From: Nitrosospira sp. NpAV
Lineage (GTDB): Bacteria > Pseudomonadota > Gammaproteobacteria > Burkholderiales > Nitrosomonadaceae
Assembly (NCBI RefSeq): GCF_000832065.1
Contig: NZ_JXQM01000003.1
Span: 62,001-126,000, forward strand
DNA length: 64,000 bases
Direction: 5' to 3'
The notes beneath the pieces are model-generated. The model saw only the letters and a list, made by a program, of their open reading frames with translations, was not told where the DNA came from and did not search any database. This document shows positions 6,942-64,000 of this stretch, piece by piece (position 1 is the first letter of the stretch; the number at the start of each line of letters is the position of its first letter). A program made the position numbers and the translations under genes.

Positions 6942-6966
6942 TACGTATTGCCGATTTCTGACCGCT

Positions 6967-11335: not shown

Positions 11336-11507
11336 GTAGACGCCGGAGCGATATCAATGTGAACTCTTAATCCACAGGTCTCACGTTCGCGCCCTGGTTG
11401 GGAAGCCAAAAAATGAGTAGGCCCTATAGTAGATTATTCGGTAAGACTACAGCAAAGGAGGCAATTTAACGCCATACAGAGCCTCTGGGGGATAACGTGA
11501 ATAGTCC

Positions 11508-12882: not shown

Positions 12883-13422
12883 ATGTCTGAATTGATTGCA
12901 GTGGGTTTTAAAGATGCCGAAGAAGCCGATCGTGTTTTGCTCAAGCTTGCCAAATTAAAAAAGGAACACCTGATAGATCTTGAGGACGCCGTTGTCGTCA
13001 TCCGCGACGAAGCCGGCAAGGTCCACCTTAAGCAGAACATTAATCTTATCACTACCGAATCGACGATCGGTTCCAGTTTCACTTTTATTTCCGGCAGCTT
13101 ATGGGGAGCCCTGGTCGGACTGCTGTTCCTGCATCCGTTTGCCGGCTTTGTATTGGGCGGGGCAATCGGCGTCGGGGCAGGCTCGCTGTCCGGTTCGCTC
13201 TCCGACTACGGCATCGACGATGATTTCATCAAGTCGTTGGGCGAAACCATTCCCATCAACTCGTCGGCACTTTTCATTCTCGTACGCAAGGCGCAGCCGG
13301 AAAGGGTTCTGGCGGAATTCTCCGGCACTAGAGGCGAGGTCATGCGAACGTCGCTGTCTCCCGAGCAGGAGAAAAAGCTTCGGGAAGCCTTGGCAGATTC
13401 AACACCTTCCATCACGGCATAG
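12883..13422 (+). CDS. DUF1269 membrane protein
   Basis: 179 residues of the DUF1269 family. It starts MSELIAVGFKDAEEADRVL, has a Gly-rich double membrane hairpin in the middle (about residues 63-110, LWGALVGLLFLHPFAGFVLGGAIGVGAG) and a C-terminal regulatory-like domain with NSSALFILVRKAQPERVLAEF. These proteins are common in stress and accessory regions and have no proven function. A good Shine-Dalgarno (GGGAGAG) precedes ATG 12883. Confidence 0.88.
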   Translation: MSELIAVGFKDAEEADRVLLKLAKLKKEHLIDLEDAVVVIRDEAGKVHLKQNINLITTESTIGSSFTFISGSLWGALVGLLFLHPFAGFVLGGAIGVGAGSLSGSLSDYGIDDDFIKSLGETIPINSSALFILVRKAQPERVLAEFSGTRGEVMRTSLSPEQEKKLREALADSTPSITA

Positions 13423-13627
13423 CTGAGATGTAGGGCGCAATCAGATTTTTCTGGGTTCTGATGAATTTGTGGCCTGCAGCACACTCTCACTGCGGATGAT
13501 CCCATCGTTGGAGAGGTGGATGTTCACCATTTGGAGGCTCTGGTATACAGCCTTAATTCTGGCAAAATTCCACGGTGCCCCTTTGAATGCCTTGAGAGGG
13601 TAATATGTATGCAGGTGGCTAGATATT

Positions 13628-14983: not shown

Positions 14984-15182
14984 ATATGAAGGATGCTGTC
15001 CAGGATTGACCCTGCCGGTATCAAGGAAAGGATTATAACGATTACTCTTAAGTCTTTGGTGGCAGGCCGCCAATATATTGGCCTCCCGATTACTGGAACG
15101 TTAACTTGTCTTAAATTTAATCTCCAAAACCCATAACACCTATTCTGAATAGAAACCTCGCGGCGCTATCCAAGTTCTGAAT

Positions 15183-15362
15183 TTAATACCGTTTGGCTAA
15201 TAGCTGCTTAACTTGTTCCAGGTCCTGCTGGATCTGCTCCACCGATGCGGCCAGATAGATCAGTCCAAGATAAAGGTTATATTTTTCCGGTTGATTTTGT
15301 TCATTCCCAAATGAATTGAGATTTTCAACGAACATTCTCTTTGCATCCGAAGCTGCTGACAT
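15183..15362 (-). CDS. Small unknown protein (59 aa), likely helical
   Basis: Leftward frame from ATG 15362 to TAA 15183. An excellent AAAGGAG lies six bases before the ATG, which is the main support for a real gene. The product starts MSAASDAKRMFVENLNSFG and ends with an amphipathic helix (SVEQIQQDLEQVKQLLAK) that could form a coiled coil. No signal or membrane segment. It lies upstream of the diguanylate cyclase on the same strand, about 200 bases away. I do not recognise the family. Confidence 0.6.
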   Translation of the reverse strand: MSAASDAKRMFVENLNSFGNEQNQPEKYNLYLGLIYLAASVEQIQQDLEQVKQLLAKRY

Positions 15363-15734
15363 ATTGAACTCCTTTGTAATAAATCCGGATTCTCCGTTAG
15401 CTGACTCCCCGAACCTGCCCGGGTTGGGTGTGATCGACAGATCTCCCTATTAGCCAAGGATCGCATGGATAAGGGCATGTCACAACTCTGGGCAATAAAA
15501 CTCCGCGCAGTGACTCAACCCTACCCGCCGATCAGTTTCTGTAATCTACAGTATCCATCCACCAGGGATTTTGTTATTTTAGAGAGGAATGCTAAGATTA
15601 AAGCTGGCATGTTTTCAAGGCTTCCTTAATACTAGGTATATGGACGGGCGTACCGAACCCCTAAAGGCATGGGCGATCCGGCCAAAAGTTCAGCTTGAAT
15701 TAAAACTCGATTGATCGATCACAGGACTATAAAA
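15363..15734. other. Intergenic stretch, nothing recognised
   Basis: 372 bases between divergently read small genes. I see no conserved frame, repeat or RNA; promoters for both sides are expected here. Confidence 0.4.
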
Positions 15735-49706: not shown

Positions 49707-50000
49707 ATGCAACCGATATTGCGACAAAAAGGCAGCATAACGCTGTTTACGCTACTTCTGATTATTTTTGCGGCATCAATGGCATACTGGCTGTGGCGGG
49801 CCCATGCCCAGGTATCCCTGGAGATCGAGGTGGCCTGCCGTCTGCCTGCCGCGGAAGCCTGCGCTTCAGCCAAGGCTCGCTACATGAACAATTTTTATGC
49901 CGCATGGCTTGCACAGATGTTTCCGTGGATACTTCCGTTCGTTCCTGCCTTTATTTATGTATTCTTTTTCCGCTGGTTGCGTAAAGACCGGCAACCTTGA
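49707..50000 (+). CDS. Small membrane protein (97 aa)
   Basis: 97 residues, ATG 49707 preceded by GGGAGCGGAAAG. Two membrane segments (ITLFTLLLIIFAASMAYWLW and FPWILPFVPAFIYVFFFRWL). No family recognised. The next gene, dinB, is on the opposite strand and ends 15 bases away. Confidence 0.6.
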   Translation: MQPILRQKGSITLFTLLLIIFAASMAYWLWRAHAQVSLEIEVACRLPAAEACASAKARYMNNFYAAWLAQMFPWILPFVPAFIYVFFFRWLRKDRQP

Positions 50001-50015
50001 GTGACCAGCCACGTT

Positions 50016-51185
50016 CTATTGCTCGATAGGTTGTTGCACAGTCAGCGGGAGTTCCCTTTGACGGGATATGCGGGCACTCTGCTGTGCAACCTTCGCGGAA
50101 GACAGCGCGCTGGCCCGCACACCCAGCAACCGCAGCTTCCGATTCAGCGGTACGCGCCGCAGACATTCTTCAGCTGCCCGGCGAATGGTAATGGGGTCGG
50201 CGGTAGGAAGGGATAGCGTGAGGTCGCGGGTTATGGTGCGAAAATCGGCATACCGCAATTTGATGCCGATGGTGCGTCCGAGGTAACCCTTGCGCTGGAG
50301 ATCGTCTGCCACATCGGTGCATAGCGCCGTGAAGATTTCCGAGAGTAGGGAGCGATCCCGGCGGGCATGGAGATCCCGTTCGAAAGTTGTCTCCCGGCTG
50401 ATCGACTTAGGTTCGGCATGCGTGATGACCGGGCGTTCGTCGATGCCGTGGGAAACCTCGTGCAGCCAGCGAGCATAGGCGTGGCTGAAGTGCATCTGCA
50501 GAAAGGAGGGCTCGGCACCCGCCAGTTCGGCGATGGTAGTGATGCCAAGCGCTGCGAGCTTGTCAGTCGCCTTGGGGCCGATGCCGTTAATTTTCTTGAC
50601 GGGTAGAGGCCAGATCCGGCTTGGAATATCCGCCAGGCCTAGTATGGTGAGCCCATCGGGTTTTTCGAGATCCGAACAGATTTTCGATAGCAGCTTGTTG
50701 GGTGTCACGCCGATGGAACAAGAGAGTCCTGTGGCTTCATATACCGCCTGTTTGATGCGTTGGGCGAGCGTCATGGTGTCGCCGGGCAGATCGCTCAAAT
50801 CGAGGTAGATCTCATCAATGCCATGATCTTCGATCCGGGGGGCGATAGTGGCCACGGCGGTTTTGAACAGCCGTGAATAATGGCGATAGGCATGGAAGTC
50901 CGCGGGCAGCAAGATCGCATCCGGTGCCAGCGGCGCGGCTTTCATCAGACCCATGCCGGAGAAGACACCGAAAACGCGGGCCTCATAAGTAGCCGTGGTC
51001 ACCACTCCTCGTCCCGCATAATCCCGCAGCCGTGCGAAATGCCGGCTGCCGTCCTTGAGAAGCGCCGGTTGCCGATCGCTCTGTCCGCCGATCACGACAG
51101 GGACCCCGCGCAATTCAGGGTAGCGCAACAACTCGACCGACGCGTAGAAGGCATCCATATCAAGATGTGCAATGCGCCGAACCAT
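50016..51185 (-). CDS. dinB: DNA polymerase IV
   Basis: 389 residues, Y-family translesion polymerase. The catalytic DMDAFYASVE (residues 9-18) and HGIDEIYLDLSD are intact, as are the palm SIGVTPNKLLSKICSDLEKPDG and the HhH region GIGPKATDKL. Compared with E. coli, an insert of roughly 20 residues lies around 35-60 (QSDRQPALLKDGSRHFARLR). C-terminal RQRELPLTV resembles a clamp-binding peptide. Downstream of a permease gene by 51 bases but unlikely to be functionally linked. Confidence 0.96.
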   Translation of the reverse strand: MVRRIAHLDMDAFYASVELLRYPELRGVPVVIGGQSDRQPALLKDGSRHFARLRDYAGRGVVTTATYEARVFGVFSGMGLMKAAPLAPDAILLPADFHAYRHYSRLFKTAVATIAPRIEDHGIDEIYLDLSDLPGDTMTLAQRIKQAVYEATGLSCSIGVTPNKLLSKICSDLEKPDGLTILGLADIPSRIWPLPVKKINGIGPKATDKLAALGITTIAELAGAEPSFLQMHFSHAYARWLHEVSHGIDERPVITHAEPKSISRETTFERDLHARRDRSLLSEIFTALCTDVADDLQRKGYLGRTIGIKLRYADFRTITRDLTLSLPTADPITIRRAAEECLRRVPLNRKLRLLGVRASALSSAKVAQQSARISRQRELPLTVQQPIEQ

Positions 51186-51236
51186 TCAGCAATCCACCCG
51201 ATCAAAATGCAGGCAGTAAATTCCTGCGATACTTCA

Positions 51237-53741
51237 TCAAATTCTCCGTAACGTCATGAGTGGTGGAGTTGAAAGCGCGGAGCGGGTCCCCATCAGCCCC
51301 GCCACGGTGACGCCTATCGTTCCCGAAAGCAAGCCGGTAAGCCATATCCACGGGTTGAAGGTGTAGGTCAGATTCAACGTATATTCACCGATGACATAGC
51401 CCAGCGCACTGGCTCCCGCCGCGGCGAAAAGACCGGCCAGTCCGCCGAGTAAGGCAAATTCCGCAGCCCAGGCGCGCGCCAATTGACCGCGCTTGGCCCC
51501 CAACGTGCGAAATATGGCAGCCTCGTGAATGCGTTCATCCTGGGTGGAAGCGATCGCGGCATACAGCACTGCCAATCCCGCCAACAGCGTGAACAGGAAA
51601 ACAAATTCGACCGCTTTGGTCACCTGTTCAATTACTTTGTGGACTTGGCTGATGATAGTCGCCACATCGATCACCAGCAGATTGGGAAAGGCTTTGATCA
51701 GTTTGTTGGTGACTTCCATACGCTCCAGCGGCAGGTGAAAACTGGTAATGTAGGTGGCCGGATATTTTTCCAGCACGCCCGGGGGTGTAACCACGAAGAA
51801 ATTAACGTGAAACGTATCCCAGTCCACCTTCCTCAGACTGGTGATCGTGGCGGAAAAGGTGCTCCCCGCAACGTCGTAAGTCAGCGTGTCACCAAGACCG
51901 ACACCTATCGTTTTTGCGATACTTTCCTCCAGGGACATCATCGCTTTTCCCTTATCCTCATTTTTCCACCAGCGGCCCTCGATAATCTGGTTATCGCTCT
52001 GCATTTCCTCCGCCCAGGAAAGATTGAACTCGCGCTCAACCAGCCGTCTTGCGCGGATGTCGGTATATTCTCCAGCGGTCACGGTCTTGCCGTTGACTGC
52101 TGTCAGGCGCCCGCGAACCATTGGAAAAACCGGTGGCCGCTTGAGGCCGTGCTGGTCAAAGAATGCCGCCAGCGGCTCCAGTTGATCGTCCTGAATATTC
52201 ACCAGAAAATGATCGGGTGCGTCCGGAGGCAAACTCGTGCGCCAGTTTTGCAGCAAATCATCCCGGATCAATGTCAGCGCCAGCAGCGCCATCAGGCCCA
52301 ATCCCAGCGCCACCGCCTGCACCACGCTAGCGGTGGCGCGCCGCCGGATACTCGCCAATCCATAGCGCAACGCACCCCCCGCCTGACCGCGCATATGTGC
52401 CAAGGCTTTAACCAGCAGAAATCCCAGCGAACCAAAAACCGCTATCGCCGCGGCAAATCCGCCCATGACAGAAGCACCCAGACGCACGTCACCCGCCTTC
52501 CACATAAATAATATCGCCAGCGCTATCAGTCCCAGAGCGTAGCCCGTCAGGCTGCCCGTATTCGGCATCCCGATATCCCGGCGCAATACGCGCAATGCGG
52601 GCACGCTACGCAAATTGAGCAAGGGCGGCAGCGCAAAGCCGAGCAATAACACCATGCCGGTCAGCAATCCATGCACGCCAGGCCACACGCTGGGATAAGG
52701 CAATTCCGCCTTCACCAGCCCGGAGAGCCAGAAAGCCAGCGCTTCTTGCGCGAAAAAACCGAGCAGGCAACCGGCCCCGCTGGCGATCAGGCCCAGTGCG
52801 GCGAAATGCCCCAGGTAAAGGCGTAGCATCGCTGCCTGGCTGGCGCCCAGACAACGCATCACGGCGCAACCGTCGAGATGGCGCTGCGTGAAACGGCGCA
52901 CCGCAAGCGCCGCTGCCGCCGCCGCCAGTACCACGCTTGCGAGAGCGGCCAGACTGAGAAATTTTTCTGCCCGCTCCAACGCCGATTTGATCTCAGGGCG
53001 AGCATCGCGGATGCCTTCAATTCTTTCTCCCAGCGTCAAATGCGATTGAGCCCATCTCCGGAAATTTTCCACCACACTGTCTTCCCCCGAAACCAGAAGA
53101 CGATAGCCAACCCGGCTCCCCTGCTGCACCAAGCCGGTCGCGGGCAGATCAACCTTGTTGATCAATACACGCGGCCGCAAATTTATGAAACCAATCGAGT
53201 AGTCCGGCTCCTGCGTTATCAGTGCGGTAACAGTAAAGTGCGCCGCGCCCAGCTCAATCGTATCGCCCCGATTGAGCCCAAGACGAATCATGAGTTTTTC
53301 ATCCACCCACGCCGATCCGGGTGCGGGAATTGCATTGGCGATATGCGTAGGCCGGGGGGATGATCCATCGCTAAAATCCTCGCTGATGCGCAGCTCGCCT
53401 CGCAGGGGATAACCAGCGGTAACCGCCTTGATCTCGGTCAACAGACTGGTCTCCCCCTTCGCGGCCATGCTGGGAAACTTAATCGCGGTGGAAACAGTCA
53501 GTCCGTGCCGGCTCGCTTCAGCCGCATAATGCGGCGACAGGGGATGGTCGGCAAAAATTATCAGATCCGCGCCAAGCAGCTGATTGCCCTGGCGGGAAAG
53601 CGCCAATTGCACCCGGTCGGCGAAAAACCCCACCGTGGTCATGCCGCCCACGGCGATTACCAGCGCAAAAGCCAGTACGCGCAATTCGCCCGCACGCCAA
53701 TCACGGCGAAGCATCCGAAAGGAAAGCTTAATGAGGTTCAT
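51237..53741 (-). CDS. FtsX/YbbP-type ABC transporter permease
   Basis: 834 residues with about ten membrane helices and two large extracytoplasmic domains; the FtsX signature (PVLSGT-type; here AYWASTQDERIHEAAIFRTLGAKRGQLA in the cytoplasmic coupling part) is seen near residue 725. Homologues such as YbbP pair with a YbbA ATPase, but no ABC ATPase gene is next to this one, so its partner must be elsewhere or it acts with a distant ATPase. Role unclear. Confidence 0.88.
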   Translation of the reverse strand: MNLIKLSFRMLRRDWRAGELRVLAFALVIAVGGMTTVGFFADRVQLALSRQGNQLLGADLIIFADHPLSPHYAAEASRHGLTVSTAIKFPSMAAKGETSLLTEIKAVTAGYPLRGELRISEDFSDGSSPRPTHIANAIPAPGSAWVDEKLMIRLGLNRGDTIELGAAHFTVTALITQEPDYSIGFINLRPRVLINKVDLPATGLVQQGSRVGYRLLVSGEDSVVENFRRWAQSHLTLGERIEGIRDARPEIKSALERAEKFLSLAALASVVLAAAAAALAVRRFTQRHLDGCAVMRCLGASQAAMLRLYLGHFAALGLIASGAGCLLGFFAQEALAFWLSGLVKAELPYPSVWPGVHGLLTGMVLLLGFALPPLLNLRSVPALRVLRRDIGMPNTGSLTGYALGLIALAILFMWKAGDVRLGASVMGGFAAAIAVFGSLGFLLVKALAHMRGQAGGALRYGLASIRRRATASVVQAVALGLGLMALLALTLIRDDLLQNWRTSLPPDAPDHFLVNIQDDQLEPLAAFFDQHGLKRPPVFPMVRGRLTAVNGKTVTAGEYTDIRARRLVEREFNLSWAEEMQSDNQIIEGRWWKNEDKGKAMMSLEESIAKTIGVGLGDTLTYDVAGSTFSATITSLRKVDWDTFHVNFFVVTPPGVLEKYPATYITSFHLPLERMEVTNKLIKAFPNLLVIDVATIISQVHKVIEQVTKAVEFVFLFTLLAGLAVLYAAIASTQDERIHEAAIFRTLGAKRGQLARAWAAEFALLGGLAGLFAAAGASALGYVIGEYTLNLTYTFNPWIWLTGLLSGTIGVTVAGLMGTRSALSTPPLMTLRRI

Positions 53742-54185
53742 AAGGACATTCTATAGATACAGATGCCGTTCTGATACGGGTTGCTCAAAAATTCCGCCAT
53801 TTATCCATTTATCATATATCGGTTTTACTATTTTTTTACCCTACCCCATTTAGCGAGCCCTTGAATTCGTTACCGGCTTTCCCGGCTCAGCTGTCAAACG
53901 CGCACTCCACGAAGGGCTTATCCAAGGACTTCCTAAGCTTCAATCCACATAGCTATTATTATTAAACAGGTGCGGCAATATGACACATGCGACAACTTGC
54001 CGCATGTGACAATATGCCACATTCCTAATTTCAACGATTTGGCTTATATTTTCCACCAGCAGGCATATGAGCGTTTGTAATAACATTCTGAGTACTTGTC
54101 ATAAGGCTTGCATAAAAATATATGACACTGGCACGCTCTGGTTTTGTCTTCGCCGGCACCGGCAATTCAAATGAGAATAAGAAAA
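53742..54185. other. Upstream region of the TonB receptor gene with palindrome
   Basis: 444 bases between divergent genes. It holds a palindrome and flanking imperfect repeats described separately; no gene is seen. Confidence 0.5.
53984..54008. promoter_or_regulatory. Candidate operator palindrome upstream of the TonB receptor gene
   Basis: Perfect inverted repeat CACATGCG (53984-53991) and CGCATGTG (54001-54008) with a 9-base spacer. Around it, GGCAATATGACACAT and GACAATATGCCACAT form a diverged direct repeat. It lies about 180 bases before the receptor ATG and could bind a metal- or siderophore-responsive regulator. Confidence 0.45.
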
Positions 54186-56129
54186 ATGAAAAGAAAAAGA
54201 ATCCTAGTAACCGCAACATCCACCGCCGTAACAATGATTTTTTCAGGGTTTTCAATGGCACAGAGTACAACTCCATCTCAGGGTACCAAGCTCTCTCCGG
54301 TTGTCGTGACGGCCAATCCGATTATTGATCAAGTTCGCGTCGACCCGTTTTCGAGCACATCCGCAGTGGTCACCGAAAGTCAATTGCGCGATCAGAACGC
54401 ATTCGATCTAGCCTCGGCGCTGCGCCGCACCCCCGGGGTGCAAATATCGCGCTACAACCCTGTTGGCGGCTTTGGTGGCGATCAGGGCGGCGCTGTCTAT
54501 ATTCGCGGAATGGGCGTAAGCCGTCCGGGCAGCGAAATCAAGACTTACATTGATGGCGTTCCATTTTACATGGGGGTGTGGAATCACCCATTGCTCGACT
54601 TGTTGCCAGTCAATGGCATGCAGTCCATCACTGTCTATAAAAGTCCGCAGCCGCAAATCAATGGCAACAACTTCGCCTCGATCAATCTGGAAACCAAGCG
54701 CGCAACCGAAGACGGTGTGCAAGCCAACGGAAGAATATCCGGGGGCTACTTTAGCACCTTTATCGAACAAGTGGACGTGGTCGGCCGCCGGGGTAACGTA
54801 GATTTCATGCTGGCACAAGGCCACGCCCAGTCGAATGGTCATCGGCCCAACGCAAGCGGCGAACTGAATAATGTAATGGGACGCATTGGCTTGCGGCTGA
54901 ATGCCAACTGGTCGATTGGCACAAGCTTTCTTTACGTCAACAACCTGGCGCGCGACCCTGGGGACAATCGTCTCCCGGCACCCGCTGTGGCGCCGCAATA
55001 TTATACCCAGGCGGGAATGGTCTCCGTTTTTGCATCGCATCATCACGGCAACTGGCGTGGCAGCCTTCGTGTTTACCACAACAGGGGGGAAGGCAACTGG
55101 CTGCACCAATCGGGATTGGAAGGGAATCAGTTCAATAATTTCCAGATGACCGGCGTTCGCTGGAAAGAAGAGTTTTCCCTGTGGAGAGGGGGTGCTATTG
55201 TTGCCGGACTGGACAGTGACTGGGTGTCGGGTGATTCGCGATTCAATCGCGTGGCGCCAGCGCCGCAGGGCAGCTTTAATTCGCCGACTTTTCGCGTTAC
55301 GTCACCCTACATTGCACTGAGCCAGACGATCGATCTAGGCCAAGGCTGGGCACTCGTGCCGGCAGCCGGTATGCGCGTATACGACCACAGCGAATTTCGA
55401 ACCAGAACCTCGCCACACGCCGGCCTGTCTCTGATATCCGAGAGAATTACGGTATTTGGCAATGTGTCGCGCGGCATCAACTATCCGGGGCTGGAAGCTC
55501 CGGTCCTCTCCTCCCTGATCCCTCCGTTGGGACAAAGCTGGAAGCAACTTTCCGCGGAAGAGCTCAATCACGCCGAGGTCGGAGTGAAGCTGACCCCCGT
55601 GGAATCAACGCAGATCGATATCAGTGTGTTTATCGATCAGGTAAAAAACCGCTACATCTTTGGTTTTCCGCCCAATGTTCCGCCCCCTCCCCAATTTGTG
55701 AACCTGGGTACCTATGTGATGCGGGGTGCCGAAATTGCGATCAGACAAAATATTACTCCTAATTGGACAGTATTTGGCGGCCTGACCTTGCTTGACCCCA
55801 GCATCGACAATTTACCCTATACACCGAAACGGGCTGTCACAGCGGGTATAAATGGGCAGATGGGACCCATCCGCCTGACAGTCGATACGCAGTATCAATC
55901 AAGTATTTTGGCGCTGAGCCGTCCACGCGCGGCGGGAGCCATCAATACCGAGGAAGTTGATTCATTTGTGATCATGAATGCACGTGTCTCTCACCGAGTA
56001 CCGATGCTGGGCAAACGAGGCGAAATTTTCGTGGCCATGGAAAATCTTTTGGATGCCAACTATGCCTATCGCCCAGGGTATCCCATGCCGGGACGCTGGG
56101 GTCAAATTGGCTTATCGGCAAGCTTCTGA
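54186..56129 (+). CDS. TonB-dependent outer-membrane receptor
   Basis: 647 residues from ATG 54186; ATG 54171 is possible. Signal peptide ends near FSMAQSTT, then a TonB-box-like SPVVVTANP, plug domain (FDLASALRRTPGVQISR; GGAVYIRGMGVSRPGSEIKTYIDGVPFY) and a C-terminal barrel ending in the aromatic IGLSASF. It would import a metal chelate or similar ligand using ExbBD/TonB. It is the first gene before the sulfur-transfer genes and, by position, the likely receptor for their product. Confidence 0.93.
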   Translation: MKRKRILVTATSTAVTMIFSGFSMAQSTTPSQGTKLSPVVVTANPIIDQVRVDPFSSTSAVVTESQLRDQNAFDLASALRRTPGVQISRYNPVGGFGGDQGGAVYIRGMGVSRPGSEIKTYIDGVPFYMGVWNHPLLDLLPVNGMQSITVYKSPQPQINGNNFASINLETKRATEDGVQANGRISGGYFSTFIEQVDVVGRRGNVDFMLAQGHAQSNGHRPNASGELNNVMGRIGLRLNANWSIGTSFLYVNNLARDPGDNRLPAPAVAPQYYTQAGMVSVFASHHHGNWRGSLRVYHNRGEGNWLHQSGLEGNQFNNFQMTGVRWKEEFSLWRGGAIVAGLDSDWVSGDSRFNRVAPAPQGSFNSPTFRVTSPYIALSQTIDLGQGWALVPAAGMRVYDHSEFRTRTSPHAGLSLISERITVFGNVSRGINYPGLEAPVLSSLIPPLGQSWKQLSAEELNHAEVGVKLTPVESTQIDISVFIDQVKNRYIFGFPPNVPPPPQFVNLGTYVMRGAEIAIRQNITPNWTVFGGLTLLDPSIDNLPYTPKRAVTAGINGQMGPIRLTVDTQYQSSILALSRPRAAGAINTEEVDSFVIMNARVSHRVPMLGKRGEIFVAMENLLDANYAYRPGYPMPGRWGQIGLSASF

Positions 56130-56225
56130 ATACGAGAGCATGGCAAAGCCAGATGCAAGTAACGGATCTCTGTTGAAGCCGATAAATATTGATGACGAAT
56201 TTTGTTTTAAACATGGAGGTTTTTG

Positions 56226-57398
56226 ATGCAGCTACCACCCCTAGTACACCCTTCTGAAGACCTGACTAACGATGAAATTTCGCGCTACAGCCGTCATCTG
56301 TTGATTCCCGACGTGGGCCTGGAAGGGCAACAGCGCCTCAAGAACAGTAGAGTCCTGGTGATAGGCGCCGGGGGTCTGGGATCCCCAGTGCTCTTGTATC
56401 TCGCGGCAGCCGGGGTGGGGACTTTGGGAATCATCGACTTCGATATTGTCGATGAATCCAATCTGCAAAGACAAATCATTCACGGACAATCGGATATTGG
56501 CAGATTCAAATCCAAGAGCGCGAAAGACTCTGTCAACGAGTTAAATCCCTATGTTCAGGTACAGCTTCATAATGAACGCCTTGAGGCAGCCAATGCCGTA
56601 GAAATAATCTCGGGTTATGACCTGATTGTGGATGGAACCGATAATTTCTCCACGCGTTATCTTGTCAACGATGCCTGTGTACTTGCCGGAAAGCCTTATG
56701 TCTGGGGATCCATCTTCCGTTTCGAAGGGCAGGCTTCCGTCTTTTGGGAAGATGCGCCGGGTGGAGGCGGTTTGAACTATCGTGATCTATACCCCGAACC
56801 GCCGCCATCCGAAATGGCACCCTCATGCGCGGAAGGCGGGGTATTAGGCATTCTCTGTGCTTCGATCGGCGCAATCATGGCAACGGAGGCTATTAAATTG
56901 ATCACCGGTCTAGGTGAAACCCTGCTTGGCCGGCTTGCTGTCTACGATGCGCTGGATATGACATATCGATTTATTCCGATACGGCGGTCACCCATGAGAA
57001 CGCCTGTAACCGGATTGATCGATTATCAGGAATTTTGCGGACAAAGGCCGGCGGCAATCGATCATAAAACGGATGCTCCGGTAATCAGCGCATTGGAGCT
57101 AAAAGAAATGCGGGAAAGCGGGACGAATTTGCGACTGATCGATGTGCGTGGAATCGAGGAATGGAACATTGTTCATATCGAAGGCGCCAACCATATCCCC
57201 AAAAATAAAATAATGTCCGAGGACATCTTATCCCAATTCAATAAAGAGGATTTCATCGTGCTTCATTGCAAAATGGGTGCCCGCTCCAAAGATGTTCTCT
57301 TTGAGATGCGAAAGCAAGGATTTACGAACGTTAAAAGTCTGGATGGCGGAATTTTGGCGTGGATTAGAGACGTTGATCGCTCTTTACCGCGTTATTAG
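56226..57398 (+). CDS. MoeB/ThiF-type adenylyltransferase fused to rhodanese
   Basis: 390 residues from ATG 56226, six bases after GGAGG. An E1-like adenylating domain (nucleotide loop GAGGLG at 47-52, catalytic Cys201 in APSCAEGG) is followed by a rhodanese domain with its loop LHCKMGARS (Cys348). It lacks the CxxC zinc cysteines of E. coli MoeB, like the MoeZ/QbsC type. It should adenylate the C-terminal Gly of the small carrier at 58113 and load it with sulfur. 97 bases after the receptor gene. Confidence 0.93.
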   Translation: MQLPPLVHPSEDLTNDEISRYSRHLLIPDVGLEGQQRLKNSRVLVIGAGGLGSPVLLYLAAAGVGTLGIIDFDIVDESNLQRQIIHGQSDIGRFKSKSAKDSVNELNPYVQVQLHNERLEAANAVEIISGYDLIVDGTDNFSTRYLVNDACVLAGKPYVWGSIFRFEGQASVFWEDAPGGGGLNYRDLYPEPPPSEMAPSCAEGGVLGILCASIGAIMATEAIKLITGLGETLLGRLAVYDALDMTYRFIPIRRSPMRTPVTGLIDYQEFCGQRPAAIDHKTDAPVISALELKEMRESGTNLRLIDVRGIEEWNIVHIEGANHIPKNKIMSEDILSQFNKEDFIVLHCKMGARSKDVLFEMRKQGFTNVKSLDGGILAWIRDVDRSLPRY

Positions 57399-57588
57399 TC
57401 GAAATGCGAAAGCAATATTACCGTTTCCATTTTTTCATCGTAGACGTCTACTTTTCCACCGCGGTCTTGCTTTACACGGCACATTCCCCGGCTACCCTAC
57501 ATTCACCGGATTTTTAACAATGCTTTTTTTGGCAGGGCAGAGAATTCTTTTCATCTTTATCAACATATCGTCAGGAGTCGAAAAAATT

Positions 57589-58032
57589 ATGCTGACCATA
57601 CACGCTAAGCTTGTTGAGGCAATGGTTGCTCAAGCACGCAAAGATCATCCCATCGAAACCTGTGGTGTCATCGCCGGCCCCGAAGGATCCAATCTTCCGT
57701 TACGTCTGATCCCAATGCGGAATGTAGCCTGCTCAGAGACATTTTTTGAGTTCGACCCGCAACAGCAGTTGCAGGTCTGGAGAACGATGGAGGCGCGAGG
57801 TGAAGAGCCGGTCGTCATCTACCACTCGCACACCGGTACGCAAGCCTATCCGAGCCGTACCGACGTCAAGTACGCGACCGAGCCCCGCTCTCATTACGTC
57901 ATTATTCCCACGGATGCCAGACATGGAGAAGAGATTCGCAGTTTCCGCATCGCGGACGGGATGGTAACCGAAGAACGGGTAAGAATGCTGGAATCATATA
58001 AAACAGAGTGGGAGTTGGCAATGGTGGCTTAA
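57589..58032 (+). CDS. JAMM/Mov34-type metallopeptidase
   Basis: 147 residues from ATG 57589, with AGGAG 11 bases before. Complete JAMM zinc site: Glu23 and HSHTGTQAYPSRTD (His79, His81, Ser89, Asp92) matching HxHx7SxxD. In thioquinolobactin (QbsD) and PDTC clusters such an enzyme trims residues after the Gly-Gly of the sulfur carrier. Here the neighbouring carrier already ends in Gly-Gly, so its substrate may be a carrier conjugate rather than a precursor tail. Confidence 0.92.
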   Translation: MLTIHAKLVEAMVAQARKDHPIETCGVIAGPEGSNLPLRLIPMRNVACSETFFEFDPQQQLQVWRTMEARGEEPVVIYHSHTGTQAYPSRTDVKYATEPRSHYVIIPTDARHGEEIRSFRIADGMVTEERVRMLESYKTEWELAMVA

Positions 58033-58112
58033 GAAACCCAGATTCCATCGCGAGCTTTATCTTATCCACGACTTCTGGTTTCTCTTAAAAATAAATTTCC
58101 AAAGGAACAAAT

Positions 58113-58385
58113 ATGCCGATCACCGTAAATATCCCAACCATACTCCGGCCGCTCACCAACAATCATAAACGTATTGAAATTGCCGGATTCAATGTTCTTG
58201 AAGCCATTGAGCAGATGGAACGACAGTATCCCGGTGTCAAGGAAAAGCTGATCACCGACGGAAAAGCGCACCGTTTCATCAATATATACGTGAATGATGA
58301 TGACATCCGTTTCGTCAACGGTCTCTCAACAAGCCTGAGAGACGGCGACTCGTTAACCATTCTGCCTGCCGTTGCGGGAGGATAA
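58113..58385 (+). CDS. MoaD/ThiS-like sulfur carrier ending in Gly-Gly
   Basis: 90 residues, AAAGGA six bases before the ATG. Ubiquitin-like beta-grasp fold of the MoaD/ThiS class (MPITVNIPTILRPLTNN; RFINIYVNDDDIRF; GDSLTILPAVAGG). The last two residues are Gly-Gly, ready to be adenylated and thiocarboxylated by the MoeB-rhodanese protein encoded at 56226. It would hand sulfur to an activated carboxylate. Confidence 0.93.
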   Translation: MPITVNIPTILRPLTNNHKRIEIAGFNVLEAIEQMERQYPGVKEKLITDGKAHRFINIYVNDDDIRFVNGLSTSLRDGDSLTILPAVAGG

Positions 58386-58470
58386 GCGGATTTGACCTAA
58401 ATCCGATAATTAGAGTTACGAATGAGCGATCACTGGATTTAGGCTTGAATCATTTCCATACGTTAAAAAT

Positions 58471-60360
58471 ATGAGCATGAATCGTATATTAACCGGCTGT
58501 ATGATGACGGGGGCATTAAAAAACTCGCCGCCTGATTTTGCCGCCATTGCATCTTCGCTGATTTACCAGTCTACCGCATTGGGCATGAAAATCATGCCCA
58601 ATGCGAATTCGGCGGACAATGCCGCACTTTCGTTCGAATTCAAGACTCCTCATACCACCCCCATCATGTGCGGCGTGACGAGATGGGATGACACCTCCCG
58701 GCAGGCTTCTGTGACTGAAAATATCATGCAGGCGGCATGCGGACTCATGTCGGTGCATGGACGCGCCAGCGGCAGATCCCGCCCCCTGGGATTGAATTAC
58801 GTCTCAACCTTGACGGCCGCATTGGCGCTCCAAGGGGGAGCGGCTGCCTCGATCGGTCAACTACGGGGCCTTTCGGTATCCAACAGCAGTGTTTCGATGG
58901 CATCCGCAGCCCTGTTGAGTGTGGGACAGTATATAGCGGGAGCTACCGCCTCAGAGTCTCCCGAAACACTATTGCCAGACCGTATTTCGCGGCCGGCTTG
59001 TCTTCCCTTTGTTTCATCGGATGGCGTCATCTTTGAACTCGAAACACTTGATGCCGGACCGTGGCAAAGATTCTGGACCGAGATCGGCGTGAGTTCGACC
59101 GTAGCCGGCAGGGGATGGATGGCTTTTTTGCATCGATATGCCAAAGCTATATCCCCCCTGCCTGAGGAACTAGCTAGCGCAATATCGAAACTTTCTTACT
59201 CCCATATTTCACAAATATGCATTCGTGCCGGCATGGCTATTTGCCCGGTGCGCTCAATCGACGACCGGGCCAAAGACGACGACAGCAAACACGTATGGCT
59301 TCAGGGTCCATGGGAATTCGTTTTCGAGGCTAGCCCCAACGACAGGGCGTCAACTCATGTCACCAATGACCTGCCGCTAAGCGGACTTACCATCATCGAA
59401 TCCTGCCGGCGGATTCAAGGCCCTCTTGCGGGACACCTGCTCGCGCTTCTGGGAGCAACGGTTATCAGGATAGAACCTCCGGGTGGGGATCCGCTGCGGG
59501 GTATGCCACCGATGGCCGAGGGCTGCTCCGCACGATTCGATGCGCTCAACCGGCTTAAAACCGTCCGGGAAGTGGATATCAAATCTCCCGCCGGGCAAGC
59601 GGAAATCAAGGAATTGGCACGTCATGCCGACGTATTTCTGCATAACTGGGCACCCGGTAAAGCGGTGCTGTTAAATCTTGACCATGATGACTTGGCTACG
59701 ATCAACCCTTCCATGATTTATGCCTACGCCGCCGGTTGGGCCACTGACAGCGCCGCCCATTCCCCTTCAAGCCCGATGCCCGGCACGGATTTCATGACCC
59801 AAGCCTACTCCGGCGTCGCCAAAAGAATCGCCGAGGCTTCCGGCACGCTTGGCGGATCATTATTTACGGTACTTGATGTACTTGGGGGCGTCGTCGCGGC
59901 ACAGGGGATCACACTTGCACTGCTCAATCGATGCATGAATAGTGCGGGCGGGAAAGTCACCTCATCGCTGATGAGCGCGTCAACACTTTTGTGTGCGGAT
60001 GATTTTCAGAACTTATACAGTTTGCCGGGCCCCGGCGCCCTCCCTAAAAGCGTTATCGACAATGTCTATGACACCAAGCAGGGGAAAATTGCGATCGAGT
60101 GCTGTGACGTGGGGGCGCTGGTGCGATTGACCGAAGTGCTGGAAGTCGCCATCGATGTCCAAGATGATCTTGAGCAATGCCTGAGCGACATATTCCTGTC
60201 AAGAACGGCGTATGAGTGGGCCGATATCTTTGAACAGGCACGCATACCTTCAGCCGTTGTTATTGAAGACCTCGCTGACTTGCAGACCACAGCACATCTG
60301 CAACCTGGCCTGAGTCCCGGCCCTTATACAAGAGTTAATTCTCCCTGGAGTTTCAAATGA
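58471..60360 (+). CDS. Two-part type III (CaiB-like) CoA transferase
   Basis: 629 residues, twice as long as a simple CaiB half. The C-terminal half is a clear type III CoA transferase (LSGLTIIESCRRIQGPLAG at 304-322, ATVIRIEPPGGDPLRGMPP, and the catalytic-Asp segment PGTDFMTQAYSG, Asp440). The N-terminal ~300 residues look like a second, degraded CaiB part (ENIMQAACGLMSVHG; SRPLGLNYVSTLTAALALQG) without the usual active-site Asp. Its stop overlaps the next gene's ATG, so it is coupled to the AMP ligase. Role in the cluster: probably moving or removing CoA on the aromatic acid. Confidence 0.88.
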   Translation: MSMNRILTGCMMTGALKNSPPDFAAIASSLIYQSTALGMKIMPNANSADNAALSFEFKTPHTTPIMCGVTRWDDTSRQASVTENIMQAACGLMSVHGRASGRSRPLGLNYVSTLTAALALQGGAAASIGQLRGLSVSNSSVSMASAALLSVGQYIAGATASESPETLLPDRISRPACLPFVSSDGVIFELETLDAGPWQRFWTEIGVSSTVAGRGWMAFLHRYAKAISPLPEELASAISKLSYSHISQICIRAGMAICPVRSIDDRAKDDDSKHVWLQGPWEFVFEASPNDRASTHVTNDLPLSGLTIIESCRRIQGPLAGHLLALLGATVIRIEPPGGDPLRGMPPMAEGCSARFDALNRLKTVREVDIKSPAGQAEIKELARHADVFLHNWAPGKAVLLNLDHDDLATINPSMIYAYAAGWATDSAAHSPSSPMPGTDFMTQAYSGVAKRIAEASGTLGGSLFTVLDVLGGVVAAQGITLALLNRCMNSAGGKVTSSLMSASTLLCADDFQNLYSLPGPGALPKSVIDNVYDTKQGKIAIECCDVGALVRLTEVLEVAIDVQDDLEQCLSDIFLSRTAYEWADIFEQARIPSAVVIEDLADLQTTAHLQPGLSPGPYTRVNSPWSFK

Positions 60361-62021
60361 ATCATTCGGGCGTCATAGATAGGGTTCCCGCTGAAATTCG
60401 CCAACAGTGGGCCCAAAATGGAATTTACCCTGGTAAATCCGTATATGAATTATTTTGCGAGCATGTGCGGCGGCACCCCGACAGTCCGGCGGTTATATCC
60501 CTTGATCAAACCATCACTTACATAGAGCTGTTGGACAAGATCCATCGCCTGGCTGGCAGTCTCAAAGCGCTGGGAGTTGTTTCCGGAGACGTTGTCGCGT
60601 ACCAGCTCCCCAACAGCTGGCATAGCTGTGCAATCGATCTCGCGGCGGCCGCGCTGGGCGCAATCGTGGCGCCTTTTCCCCCAGGGCGCGGGCGCCTTGA
60701 TACCCAGTCTTTGCTGAGACGGTGTGATGCGCGTTTAATTGTTGTCGAGCAGGAATACGCCGGGGCCAATCTATGCGAAATGATTGAATCGATACGGCCG
60801 ACTTTGTTGTCACTCCGTATTCTCGTTGTTGATGGAATAAGCCGCAACGGCTGGCACACAATGGACGACCTGTTTCAAGCCGAGCCAATTGAATTGAGTC
60901 AATTACCGGAAGTTTCTCCCGAGTCCCCCGTTCGCCTCCTGATTTCATCCGGGACCGAATCCGAACCGAAATGGGTTGCCTATTCCCACAACGCGCTGGC
61001 TGGCGGACGGGGGCGTTTTCTGCAACGAATACATCCTGATGGAAGCACTTTCAGGGGGTTTTACTTAATGCCGCTTGGCACGGCATTTGGTTCAACCGCA
61101 ACATTCGGTATTTTATCCTGGCTCGGCGGATCGGTTATCGTTCTGCCGCAATTCGATGTCGCGGCTGCCATTCGAACTATCGCGGAGCTGAAGCCGGCCT
61201 ATATCTTTGGCGTCCCCACCATGTTTCAACGCATCGCCGCGGACCCGGAATTATCCAAGATCGATACCTCCAGTCTGATTGCCATTATCAGTGGCGGCGC
61301 GAAAATCGATGAGGCCTCAATCCGCCGATGTACCGACGCATTCGGATGTGGTTTTATCAGCTTATACGGATCCGCGGACGGTGTTAACTGCCACACCACC
61401 CTCGATGACGATCTGGAAACTATTTTTCGTAAAGCGGGCCGGCCTAATCCGGACGTCTGTTCCATCCGGATAGTCGATGATCAGAAACAGGAGGTGCCGC
61501 AAGGTTGCATTGGTGAAATTACCGCCAGAGGCCCGATAAGCCCTATGCAATATGTTAATGCACCAGAGCTGGATGCGCTATACCGGGACGAGGAAGGCTG
61601 GGTCTATACCGGAGACCTCGGCCTTATCGATAGTGATGGATATCTGGTGCTATCCGGCCGTAAAAAAGACATCATTATTCGTGGCGGGGTCAATATCAGT
61701 CCCGCCCAAATCGAGAATATCGCGGCCTCCCATCCAGCTGTTGTCAGCGCTGCCTGTGTACCCGTTGCCGATCCCGACCTGGGACATCGCGTTTGTCTCT
61801 GCCTGGTATTACGAGACGAAGTCGAGCGTCCATCGCTCTCCCAATTCACCCGCTACTTGCGTGAACAGGGCCTGGAAACAAATAAGCTTCCTGAATATTT
61901 ACGCTACTACCGGCAACTGCCACTCAGTCCGGCGGGAAAAATCGATAAGAAACAGTTGACCGCGGAAATCGAATTTGTCCAGCGCGCGACTGAACCCGAT
62001 CTTGCTCAATGGGCGCACTGA
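60357..62021 (+). CDS. Acyl-CoA ligase / AMP-forming activating enzyme
   Basis: 554 residues, ANL superfamily. P-loop LISSGTESEPKW (residues 195-206), adenylate-binding SLYGSADGVN-type segment (GFISLYGSADGVNC), YTGDLGLIDSDGYLVLSGRKKDIIIRGG and the C-terminal lysine loop SPAGKIDKKQL are all present. It activates a carboxylic acid as AMP or CoA ester, here most simply the metallophore precursor. Overlaps its upstream gene (ATGA) and abuts the next gene. Confidence 0.9.
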   Translation: MNHSGVIDRVPAEIRQQWAQNGIYPGKSVYELFCEHVRRHPDSPAVISLDQTITYIELLDKIHRLAGSLKALGVVSGDVVAYQLPNSWHSCAIDLAAAALGAIVAPFPPGRGRLDTQSLLRRCDARLIVVEQEYAGANLCEMIESIRPTLLSLRILVVDGISRNGWHTMDDLFQAEPIELSQLPEVSPESPVRLLISSGTESEPKWVAYSHNALAGGRGRFLQRIHPDGSTFRGFYLMPLGTAFGSTATFGILSWLGGSVIVLPQFDVAAAIRTIAELKPAYIFGVPTMFQRIAADPELSKIDTSSLIAIISGGAKIDEASIRRCTDAFGCGFISLYGSADGVNCHTTLDDDLETIFRKAGRPNPDVCSIRIVDDQKQEVPQGCIGEITARGPISPMQYVNAPELDALYRDEEGWVYTGDLGLIDSDGYLVLSGRKKDIIIRGGVNISPAQIENIAASHPAVVSAACVPVADPDLGHRVCLCLVLRDEVERPSLSQFTRYLREQGLETNKLPEYLRYYRQLPLSPAGKIDKKQLTAEIEFVQRATEPDLAQWAH

Positions 62022-63223
62022 TGCCAGAAATACGCGAGAAATCAGCGCACACGAAGCTGGCCAGAGCTCTTGCGAACGAAGTGAGAAAGTTTGTCGATGA
62101 AATCATCATTCCCCACGAATCGCAGCTGGCTCAAGATGGAAACTCATCATTCCACCTGCAATCGGAATTGGCCGAAAAAGCCCGGAGTACGGGACTATGG
62201 GGTTTATTTTATCCACCCTCCCACGGTGGAAAAATAGCTTCTCTGGAAGACTACCTGATCGTTGCTGAACAGGAGGGGCGCTCGGAATTTTCCCCCGCAA
62301 TCCTTGGCAGCCACTCCGCACTTGACGCGCATATGCTGCTGAGATTTGGCACCGATGAAATCCGCCGGGACTTCCTACAACCCATGGTGGTTGGAAAATC
62401 TGTTCCAAGCTACGGCATGACGGAGCCGGAACATGGTGGGTCATTTCCCGCCCTGATAACGACATCTGCATATCTGTCAAACGGCGGCTGGATTATCAAC
62501 GGCAGGAAATGGTTTGTCGGCAATACGGATCGGGCGACTTTTGTCACTGTCCTAGCGCGCACGGCCGAAGAAAACACAGCACCCGGCAAGGCCCTTTCCA
62601 TGATTATCGTCCCGACGGATGCACCTGGATTCAAGGTTGAACGTCAAATTACCGTGATGGGCCGCGCCCTGGGTCAGGGCGAGATATCTTTTAGCGAGGT
62701 ACGGGTCCCGGCGCATAATCTGTTGGGTGCCCGCGGCAGCGGTATGGATCTGATGGGCCGGCGACTGGGAATCGGCCGTCTGCTTCGCTCAATGAATTGG
62801 GTGGGATTGGCGCAGCGATGTTTCGATTTGATGGGCGCCCGAATTAATTCCGGCCGCGGAAGATCCGCCCGTCTGCCAGAGAAGCAGCTGGTACGCCAGC
62901 ATATTGCCAAGGCATATCAGGCTATTGCAAGCGCGCGCGCACTCATCCGCGCAGCCGCAAGGGGTGTCGATGCCCAGCGCCCAAGCGATATCGAGATCAA
63001 CGTCGCCAAAATGGCGGCATCCCAGGCTTTGTGCATCACCTCGGACTCCGCGGTACAACTGTATGGTGCCGAAGGCATCAGCGATCTTACCCCGCTTTCC
63101 GGTATCTACAGAATAGCGCGCACGTCACGCATCCTGGATGGTTCGGATGAGTCGCTTATCAGTTCGGTGGGCCGCCGGCTCATCGACTTCTATAAAGAAG
63201 AGGACGTCTATCACTTTGACTGA
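62021..63223 (+). CDS. Acyl-CoA dehydrogenase-like flavoenzyme
   Basis: 400 residues from ATG 62021 (ATG 62009 gives four more residues and a 13-base overlap). Acyl-CoA dehydrogenase fold: N-terminal helical domain, middle beta domain (SYGMTEPEHGGSFPALITTSAYLSNGGWIINGRKWFVGN), and C-terminal helices with ITSDSAVQLYGAEGISDLTPLSG. The usual catalytic Glu position cannot be confirmed by eye. It may oxidise a CoA-bound ring precursor, as expected for a dihydrodipicolinate-type intermediate, but this is inference. Confidence 0.88.
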   Translation: MPEIREKSAHTKLARALANEVRKFVDEIIIPHESQLAQDGNSSFHLQSELAEKARSTGLWGLFYPPSHGGKIASLEDYLIVAEQEGRSEFSPAILGSHSALDAHMLLRFGTDEIRRDFLQPMVVGKSVPSYGMTEPEHGGSFPALITTSAYLSNGGWIINGRKWFVGNTDRATFVTVLARTAEENTAPGKALSMIIVPTDAPGFKVERQITVMGRALGQGEISFSEVRVPAHNLLGARGSGMDLMGRRLGIGRLLRSMNWVGLAQRCFDLMGARINSGRGRSARLPEKQLVRQHIAKAYQAIASARALIRAAARGVDAQRPSDIEINVAKMAASQALCITSDSAVQLYGAEGISDLTPLSGIYRIARTSRILDGSDESLISSVGRRLIDFYKEEDVYHFD

Positions 63224-63352
63224 TTCAATTCTTGCGAACTTTTCAGATATTTACCGTAACTTGCCTGGGTGCAATGTATTGACGGCGTGCTTTTACTCGC
63301 CTGCATCATGGTACCGGCGTCAAAATCCGCTCATGGGCAGAGGGTACGGACA

Positions 63353-64000
63353 ATGCCGATAATGACCCCCGGCCCTCGGTCCACGACGGTTGTCGCCATC
63401 GGCTTCCGGGTTGTCCTGGTGTTTGCCATGGCCTTGCCCATGCTGATTTTATATGCCACCAGCACCCTTGGGCCGCTCCTTGGCCGCGACTTGCGCTTTG
63501 AGCCCGCATTACTGGGCTACCTGGTAATGAGTTCATTCGGCTTGGCAGCCATCTTGTCACTCTGGGCGGGCGCCATCGTGGATCGCATGGGTTCACGTTA
63601 TGCATTGATGGTGCTTTTCTCCGCCATCGCGCTGGCTTTCGCGCTGATGGCAACAGTCAAGAATTTTTATGGTTTGGTCGCAGCCACCGCTATTTGCGGT
63701 ATCGCCCAGGCACTTGCGAACCCTGTCACAAATTTGCTGATCGCGCAGCAGGTTCCGCCTGATAAGAAGGCCAAAGTCGTGGGGTTGAAGCAATCCGGCG
63801 TTCAGGTAGCGGCCCTCTTCGCCGGCCTGATACTCCCCGGTATCGCATTTCAGTATGGTTGGCGCGTCGCATTGGGCATGATTGTTCCGGTCGCCCTATT
63901 ATTCGCCATCTCGACGCCTTTGTTCACTCCCGGAAAACATGGCGGACCAGTCAAGGGTTTCATGTTTTCGCGCCCAAATTCGCTATTGCTGCGGCTGATG
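63353..64000 (+). CDS. Major facilitator superfamily transporter (3' partial)
   Basis: From ATG 63353 the frame is open to the end of the window (216 codons). About six membrane helices are seen, with an MFS loop VDRMGSRYALMVL and ANPVTNLLIAQQVPPDKKAKVVGLKQSG. It lies 129 bases after the dehydrogenase on the same strand and is likely the exporter of the cluster product, as in the PDTC and thioquinolobactin clusters. Confidence 0.85.
   Translation, partial: MPIMTPGPRSTTVVAIGFRVVLVFAMALPMLILYATSTLGPLLGRDLRFEPALLGYLVMSSFGLAAILSLWAGAIVDRMGSRYALMVLFSAIALAFALMATVKNFYGLVAATAICGIAQALANPVTNLLIAQQVPPDKKAKVVGLKQSGVQVAALFAGLILPGIAFQYGWRVALGMIVPVALLFAISTPLFTPGKHGGPVKGFMFSRPNSLLLRLM

What the first reader, a model, noticed from the sequence alone, without database searches (positions are those of the whole stretch)
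54186..64000. Thiocarboxylate metallophore-like gene cluster in a probable ammonia oxidiser
Seen directly: eight genes in one direction encoding a TonB receptor, MoeB-rhodanese, JAMM peptidase, GG-ended MoaD-like carrier, CaiB-type CoA transferase, AMP ligase, acyl-CoA dehydrogenase and MFS transporter, several overlapping. Known (from memory): PDTC (pdt) of Pseudomonas stutzeri/putida and thioquinolobactin (qbs) of P. fluorescens use a MoeB-rhodanese, JAMM and ThiS-like trio plus AMP ligase, receptor and exporter to make thiocarboxylate metal chelators. Inference: this is a related metallophore locus, possibly for copper or iron; the product is unknown and may be new.
Basis: partly seen in the sequence, partly recalled or inferred. 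Interest (0 to 1): 0.92.

Follow-up and report, generated by a model that had tools for sequence, protein, structure and literature searches.

The report
Thiocarboxylate metallophore cluster in ammonia oxidisers
An ammonia-oxidising bacterium carries a conserved set of genes that probably makes and takes up a small sulfur-bearing metal scavenger; its closest copies sit in other ammonia and methane oxidisers, and some relatives appear to keep only the uptake genes.

Summary
The eight genes are there as described, in a Nitrosospira-like ammonia oxidiser. Their core (MoeB-rhodanese, JAMM, carrier, CaiB, AMP ligase) was assigned to PDTC/quinolobactin-type siderophore clusters, naming Nitrosomonas europaea and Nitrosospira multiformis, in 2006 (PMC1779556), so the main reading is in print. 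New here: (1) past the window the cluster continues into a GH88-like enzyme without Pfam match, found in 60 of 79 relatives kept, and a secreted-looking amidohydrolase with a histidine-rich loop. (2) In four ammonia-oxidiser genomes without full-length CaiB, receptor and amidohydrolase sit side by side; in one, at the window's site with the biosynthetic block absent: an apparent uptake-only (pirate) state. (3) In a CaiB tree the window groups with ammonia oxidisers and methanotrophs, with lateral transfer into a Methylobacter. (4) Pseudomonas pdt-like clusters carry PigD/PigE-type genes that this version lacks. (5) 20 of 71 carriers have residues after GG, one being fused to CaiB, which gives JAMM a trimming role. 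Most likely a dipicolinate-derived thiocarboxylate metallophore system; product and metal are untested. The report that N. europaea shows no siderophore production weighs against a plain iron siderophore. Copper is possible but unproven.

The parts
54171..56129 (+). TonB-dependent receptor (ATG 54171 or 54186)
   Evidence: PF07715 plug; no close solved relative, best Fiu E 2.5e-05; found in 15 of 15 same-genus genomes that have full-length CaiB
56226..57398 (+). MoeB/ThiF adenylyltransferase fused to rhodanese (PdtF-like E1)
   Evidence: PF00899 + PF00581; MoeZ model 631 bits, cut-off 647; rhodanese HCKMGARS
57589..58032 (+). JAMM/JAB metallopeptidase (PdtG-like)
   Evidence: PF14464 (scanned from 57592, without the start codon); intact JAMM motif
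58113..58385 (+). ThiS/MoaD-like sulfur carrier ending in GG (PdtH-like)
   Evidence: PF02597; C-termini compared over 71 named carriers
58471..60360 (+). CaiB-type class III CoA-transferase, 629 aa; best match in the C-terminal half, whose Asp469 is invariant in 8 aligned sequences
   Evidence: PF02515, two stretches, best 303-609; alignment A1
60357..62021 (+). AMP-forming acyl ligase (PdtJ-like)
   Evidence: PF00501/PF13193; overlaps CaiB by 4 nt
62009..63223 (+). acyl-CoA dehydrogenase-type flavoenzyme (PdtO-like by gene order, inferred)
   Evidence: PF00441/02770/02771; best NCBIfam match acryloyl-CoA reductase 139 bits, RedW and PigA ring dehydrogenases about 100 bits, all far below cut-off
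63353..64000 (+). MFS transporter, first part; the gene ends at L002:10595 (window-equivalent 64594)
   Evidence: PF07690; start codon chosen by eye, the open frame starts at GTG 63269

Best explanation
A biosynthesis-plus-uptake locus for a small thiocarboxylate metallophore of the PDTC kind, in a version typical of ammonia and methane oxidisers. Shown by sequence: the gene set, its conservation, the E1 and carrier apart from a separate MoeB, and the receptor-amidohydrolase pair. Inferred chemistry: the rhodanese and E1 domains load sulfur on the carrier's C-terminal Gly as a thiocarboxylate; JAMM trims tails beyond GG where they exist; the ligase adenylates the acid, and sulfur from the carrier turns it into a thioacid. 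The CoA-transferase, the dehydrogenase and the GH88-like enzyme prepare the acid, most simply dipicolinate, by dehydrating the lysine-pathway intermediate hydroxy-tetrahydrodipicolinate (GH88-like acid/base chemistry) and oxidising the ring (dehydrogenase). MFS exports the product; the metal complex returns through the TonB receptor, and the amidohydrolase with its His-rich loop releases or takes over the metal in the periplasm.
For: Family assignments. Five core genes together in 19 of 19 relative loci. Named loci with the same block (79 loci) include Pseudomonas clusters whose order fits P-E-L-M-F-G-H-I-J-O of pdtCKPELMFGHIJON in strain F113, which makes PDTC derivatives (PMC7415375 passages; PMC7911646 passages). 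Separate MoeB. Receptor present in 15 of 15 same-genus genomes with CaiB. Receptor next to amidohydrolase, both with open frames, in 4 genomes without full-length CaiB, plus one truncated remnant. Capped carriers in 20 of 71; trimming of capped carriers by a protease such as QbsD is described in PMC6006322 (passages). GH88 fold: profile E 6e-29 and TM 0.80.
Against: No chemistry. N. europaea is reported with no evidence for siderophore production and CAS-negative (PMC3050691 passages), although a strain of it has the cluster (L064, ATCC 25978). In 4 of 5 second-genus genomes with CaiB this receptor was not found at E 1e-100, and only 11 of 28 copper-monooxygenase-host loci hold it within the fetched stretch. 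No Fur-box-like site beyond chance: 3 of 41 promoter regions reached 10 or fewer of 200 shuffles (a weak test). The GH88-like protein has Ser or Ala (47 of 49) in place of catalytic Asp88. The window's carrier already ends in GG, so JAMM trimming is not needed there. Relatives of the Pseudomonas genes taken as Pdt L, M, P and E are lacking (0 of 28 loci).
Confidence: 0.7

Rival explanations
1. The product is plain PDTC used for iron; the ammonia-oxidiser version differs only in accessory genes.
For: Same core as Pseudomonas pdt-like clusters; PDTC is tied to iron and zinc transport in Pseudomonas (PMC7374359 passages).
Against: N. europaea CAS-negative in iron-replete and iron-limited media (PMC3050691); no Fur-like site beyond chance (weak).
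Confidence: 0.35
2. A copper (or zinc) metallophore serving hosts of copper membrane monooxygenases, shared by ammonia oxidisers and methanotrophs.
For: 28-row branch (SH-aLRT 100) of ammonia oxidisers, gamma-methanotrophs and 3 MAGs nested with N. europaea and N. eutropha; amoA/pmoA-type genes in the Methylobacter, Methylosinus and L068 genomes; amidohydrolase in 21 of 28 such loci and 0 of 51 others; His-rich loop.
Against: Shared ancestry of ammonia oxidisers alone makes the label cluster; amoA/pmoA was not found in 2 of 4 methanotroph genomes (L062, L067) nor in L058's; His-rich loops also suit Zn, Ni and Co.
Confidence: 0.2
3. A secreted thioacid used as toxin or antibiotic, with the receptor for self-uptake of secondary importance.
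For: PDTC inhibits other bacteria (PMC7374359 passage); an RND/membrane-fusion pair lies downstream.
Against: Receptor and amidohydrolase occur together without full-length CaiB, which fits nutrient uptake better.
Confidence: 0.1
4. A ubiquitin-like protein-modification or cellular sulfur-transfer system rather than a secreted product.
For: JAMM weakly resembles desampylase and the carrier SAMP1 (both below cut-off); one carrier is in one frame with CaiB.
Against: Frequent company of AMP ligase (77 of 79 loci), dehydrogenase (67 of 79) and MFS (71 of 79).
Confidence: 0.06

Closest known systems
pdt cluster (PDTC) of Pseudomonas stutzeri, P. putida and F113
   Same: F-G-H-I-J core, dehydrogenase, MFS; the GH88-like gene in 38 of 51 non-copper-host loci
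   Different: Lacks the PigD/PigE-type genes (L/M by gene order, inferred), the methyltransferase and the second MFS; has its own alpha/beta hydrolase, porin and His-rich amidohydrolase. No pdt reference sequence was compared directly.
Siderophore-type E1/JAB/ThiS clusters, row 4a of Iyer et al. 2006 (PMC1779556)
   Same: N. europaea and N. multiformis are listed there with the same five gene families
   Different: The term acyl-CoA dehydrogenase does not occur in its main text; in what I read (passages, section 12) it names no GH88-like or amidohydrolase gene, receptor-only genome or methanotroph
qbs cluster (thioquinolobactin) of P. fluorescens
   Same: Sulfur-transfer trio and ligase; a protease (QbsD) trims a capped carrier (PMC6006322 passage)
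   Different: No kynurenine-pathway family among the 12 genes here; the window's carrier is uncapped
GH88 unsaturated glucuronyl hydrolases (1vd5, 2fv0)
   Same: Fold TM 0.80; Asp149 equivalent invariant in 49 of 49
   Different: Asp88 position is Ser (39), Ala (8), Cys (1) or Asn (1) of 49; no Pfam or NCBIfam match

Membership tests
pdt-type thiocarboxylate cluster (row 4a) | E1-rhodanese, JAB, ThiS-like carrier, CaiB and AMP ligase together | tested here: met
pdt-type thiocarboxylate cluster (row 4a) | Independent of molybdopterin/thiamine loci | tested here: met
   Separate MoeB-length gene in 6 of 6 genomes, including 2 without CaiB; no further Moco or thiamine family among the 12 genes
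pdt-type thiocarboxylate cluster (row 4a) | Full PDTC gene set incl. L, M, P, E | tested here: not met
   0 of 28 copper-host loci; letters assigned by gene order only
pdt-type thiocarboxylate cluster (row 4a) | Secreted thiocarboxylate product | not testable with these tools
   needs culture and mass spectrometry
thioquinolobactin (qbs) | Kynurenine/xanthurenate precursor genes | tested here: not met
   none among the 12 genes of the extended cluster
thioquinolobactin (qbs) | Capped carrier trimmed by JAMM | tested here: inconclusive
   window carrier uncapped; 20 of 71 named relatives capped
Fur-controlled iron siderophore | Fur box upstream | tested here: inconclusive
   41 promoter regions (21 receptor, 20 E1): 3 reached 10 or fewer of 200 base shuffles, about what chance gives; E. 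coli consensus only, which by eye fits the published N. europaea box poorly
GH88 hydrolase | GH88 fold and two catalytic Asp | tested here: not met
   fold met; Asp149 kept, Asp88 not
chalkophore | High-affinity copper binding and copper-dependent expression | not testable with these tools
   only host distribution and His-rich loop seen

The most novel reading that the evidence does not exclude
A thiocarboxylate chalkophore, traded between ammonia oxidisers and methanotrophs, which meets the copper need of their monooxygenases; imported complexes are opened in the periplasm by a dedicated His-rich amidohydrolase, and receptor-plus-amidohydrolase strains live as pirates on the producers.
Probability: 0.2. 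Interest if true: 0.88.

Novelty: new variant of a known kind. Interest (0 to 1): 0.62.

Why it matters
N. europaea, the model ammonia oxidiser, is described as showing no siderophore production (PMC3050691), although ammonia oxidation depends heavily on iron and copper. A conserved locus for a secreted metal scavenger, with apparent pirate genomes and exchange with methanotrophs, would make metal competition in nitrification testable with culturable Nitrosospira strains. The GH88-like enzyme and the His-rich amidohydrolase also give concrete proteins to assay for unsolved steps of thiocarboxylate biosynthesis and metal release.

Tried and rejected
Fur boxes: a 19-mer E. coli consensus scored against base shuffles found nothing beyond chance; the test is weak. 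Rfam: 0 families in window 50000-64000. The inverted repeat 53971-54021 in front of the receptor: its exact core was searched in 136 loci and found in one, L001, which is the window's own genome. Contamination as the cause of the Methylobacter locus L094 was rejected: AspS on the same contig is 89% and 79% identical to two methanotroph MAGs, 61-62% to four ammonia oxidisers and 45% to Methylosinus, and tetranucleotides of L094 lie nearest its own MAG's other contigs (for the 5.7 kb upstream flank alone two Nitrosomonas-group loci were slightly nearer). I first called the downstream gene a glycoside hydrolase by eye; Pfam and NCBIfam gave nothing, and profile and fold searches then supported GH88. 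Literature: besides PMC1779556, the listings showed me no paper tying these genes to ammonia oxidisers; the listings are short (6 of 675, 20 of 190, 20 of 41), and most subscription journals are not held.
Full report
What is there. The window is bases 62001-126000 of contig C202 of a 3.45 Mb genome. The eight genes of the finding are all present on the + strand with the expected families. Active-site motifs of the JAMM protease and the rhodanese are intact, and Asp469 of the CoA-transferase is invariant among eight relatives; I take this Asp for the catalytic one of class III CoA-transferases from memory. Past the window the MFS gene ends at L002:10595. Then follow a convergent alpha/beta hydrolase (L002:10545-11366, -), an alginate-export-type porin (11396-12964), a gene without Pfam match (frame 12870-14123), an amidohydrolase (14182-15462) and an RND/membrane-fusion pair on the other strand, named by eye. 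L002 position p equals window position 53999+p.

Host. AMO (PF02461) was not found in the window's own genome, but 6 of the 6 other genomes searched from the same genus and family each have three copies; collapse of multi-copy genes in assembly is my explanation. Named relatives are Nitrosospira, Nitrosovibrio and Nitrosomonas.

Already in print. Iyer et al. 2006 (PMC1779556; passages and section 12 read) put N. europaea and N. multiformis in their row 4a, siderophore biosynthesis, with PdtF, G, H, I and J. The finding's main inference is therefore not new. [quoted passage not shown] europaea and that the CAS assay, iron-replete or iron-limited, confirmed it; this speaks against a strong, readily expressed iron siderophore. 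The strain tested there is not the one behind L064.

Distribution. In 61 genomes of the family the full-length CaiB is in 15 of 23 of the window's genus (own included), 5 of 21 of a second genus and 0 of 17 of two others; two further weak, partial hits (G005, G025) were set aside. In even samples of the phylum it is in 2 of 398 genomes (own included), and of the class in 1 of 369 (own) (at most three candidates per genome were scored there). A scan of named genomes found 220 relatives, of which the best 80 (79 loci) were kept, so counts below describe those 79, not all.

Gene content of the 79 loci (score thresholds were set by me, and some loci are cut by contig ends). I labelled 28 as copper-monooxygenase hosts: 25 by title, plus three Proteobacteria MAGs that nest with N. 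europaea and N. eutropha. Of these 28, 26 have the E1, 26 JAMM and 26 the carrier, 22 the GH88-like gene, 22 the porin, 21 the amidohydrolase and 19 the alpha/beta hydrolase. Of the other 51, porin, amidohydrolase and alpha/beta hydrolase are in 0, and the GH88-like gene in 38. PigD-like and PigE-like genes are in 24 and 26 of the 51 and in 0 of the 28. The two proteins of L046 score 673 bits (cut-off 950) and 1431 bits (cut-off 850) against NCBIfam PigD and PigE. Since F113 has pdtCKPELMFGHIJON (PMC7415375) and gives both PDTC derivatives and acyl-dihydro-methyl-pyrrole compounds (PMC7911646), I infer that L and M make the pyrrolines and are not needed for the thioacid. That is inference from gene order; no pdt reference sequence was available to me.

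Tree. In a quick CaiB tree of 80 rows the window falls in a 28-row branch (SH-aLRT 100) of ammonia oxidisers, gamma-methanotrophs and the three MAGs. A wider, weaker branch (82) of 32 rows adds Methylosinus, Ralstonia, Rugamonas and Hahella. The tool warns of long branches elsewhere and of odd composition in some rows, and shared ancestry alone clusters the label. amoA/pmoA-type genes were found in 3 of 10 genomes checked: Methylobacter L094, Methylosinus L107 and MAG L068; not in L062, L067 or L058, nor in the four genomes not expected to have them. L094 sits beside Nitrosospira and N. communis in the tree (95), its E1 is 86% identical to the window's, while AspS on its contig is 61-62% identical to ammonia oxidisers and 89% to a methanotroph MAG: lateral transfer.

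Uptake module. The receptor is in 23 of 61 family genomes at E 1e-100: all 15 same-genus CaiB genomes, three more of that genus, one of the second genus and four of a third. Five of the seven genomes with receptor but without full-length CaiB were read: four have open receptor and amidohydrolase frames side by side (L126, L128, L129, L130) and one a truncated remnant (L127); G025 and G029 were not read. L129 has FtsX-receptor-amidohydrolase-RND-MFP, the order that flanks the window's cluster; the receptor stops at 6942 and the amidohydrolase frame starts at GTG 6968. That genome is rated 80% complete, so only the absence at this site is certain. Whether the block was lost there or gained in the window's lineage is open. 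Against a strict rule: in 4 of 5 second-genus CaiB genomes this receptor was not found.

Amidohydrolase. Metal-site candidates HxH, Lys, His, His are kept in 45 or 46 of 46 aligned proteins (some genomes occur twice, and paralogues are included). A His-rich loop follows the conserved Lys: 6 to 15 His in 40 residues in ammonia-oxidiser orthologues except truncated L127 (4), 7 and 5 in L094 and L107, and 3 to 4 in four paralogues. A signal peptide is judged by eye. In 398 genomes of the phylum only the own genome matches at E 1e-60 (up to four candidates per genome scored).

GH88-like enzyme. Alignment of 49, AlphaFold mean pLDDT 93, best solved relatives unsaturated glucuronyl hydrolases (E 6e-29; TM 0.80). 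Asp149 of the reference is kept in 49 of 49; the Asp88 position is Ser 39, Ala 8, Cys 1 and Asn 1 (the pairing is read from the alignment, and the two residues' catalytic role is recalled). Its role as a dehydratase that makes dihydrodipicolinate is my proposal.

Carrier and JAMM. Of 71 named loci with a carrier, 20 have residues after GG, 1 to 16 of them or, in one N. multiformis strain, the whole CaiB in one frame with no stop between; CaiB may still start at its own ATG there. In the window and the other 51 named loci the carrier ends in GG, where JAMM must do something else or is idle.

Verdict. A real, conserved thiocarboxylate cluster, predicted in 2006, here extended by an uptake module, a GH88-like enzyme and a copper-monooxygenase host pattern. 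The metal and the molecule remain to be measured.

Noticed in passing
L054 9671-11905 (Nitrosospira multiformis Nl18): Sulfur carrier and CaiB lie in one open frame without a stop between them, like a ubiquitin fusion beside its own JAMM protease.
   Followed up: partly
L126, L128, L129, L130; remnant in L127: Receptor directly followed by His-rich amidohydrolase in genomes without full-length CaiB; in L127 both are truncated.
   Followed up: yes
L046 2410-7505 and similar Pseudomonas loci: PigD-like and PigE-type genes inside pdt-like clusters; they may explain the dihydro-methyl-pyrroles reported with PDTC in strain F113.
   Followed up: partly
window 53971-54021: Imperfect 25-nt inverted repeat (76% complementary) upstream of the receptor; its exact core was found in no fetched locus but the window genome's own.
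   Followed up: partly
window 41088-43493: Penicillin-amidase family protein (PF01804), a family that includes the siderophore-maturing PvdQ (recalled), 10.7 kb upstream of the cluster.
   Followed up: no
L114, L117, L122 (actinomycetes): CaiB, ligase, dehydrogenase, GH88-like gene and MFS without E1, JAMM or carrier in the fetched stretch; PDTC has been isolated from a Streptomyces (PMC7374359 passage).
   Followed up: no
G000 whole genome: No AMO hit in a genome rated 99.86% complete, though six relatives have three copies each.
   Followed up: partly
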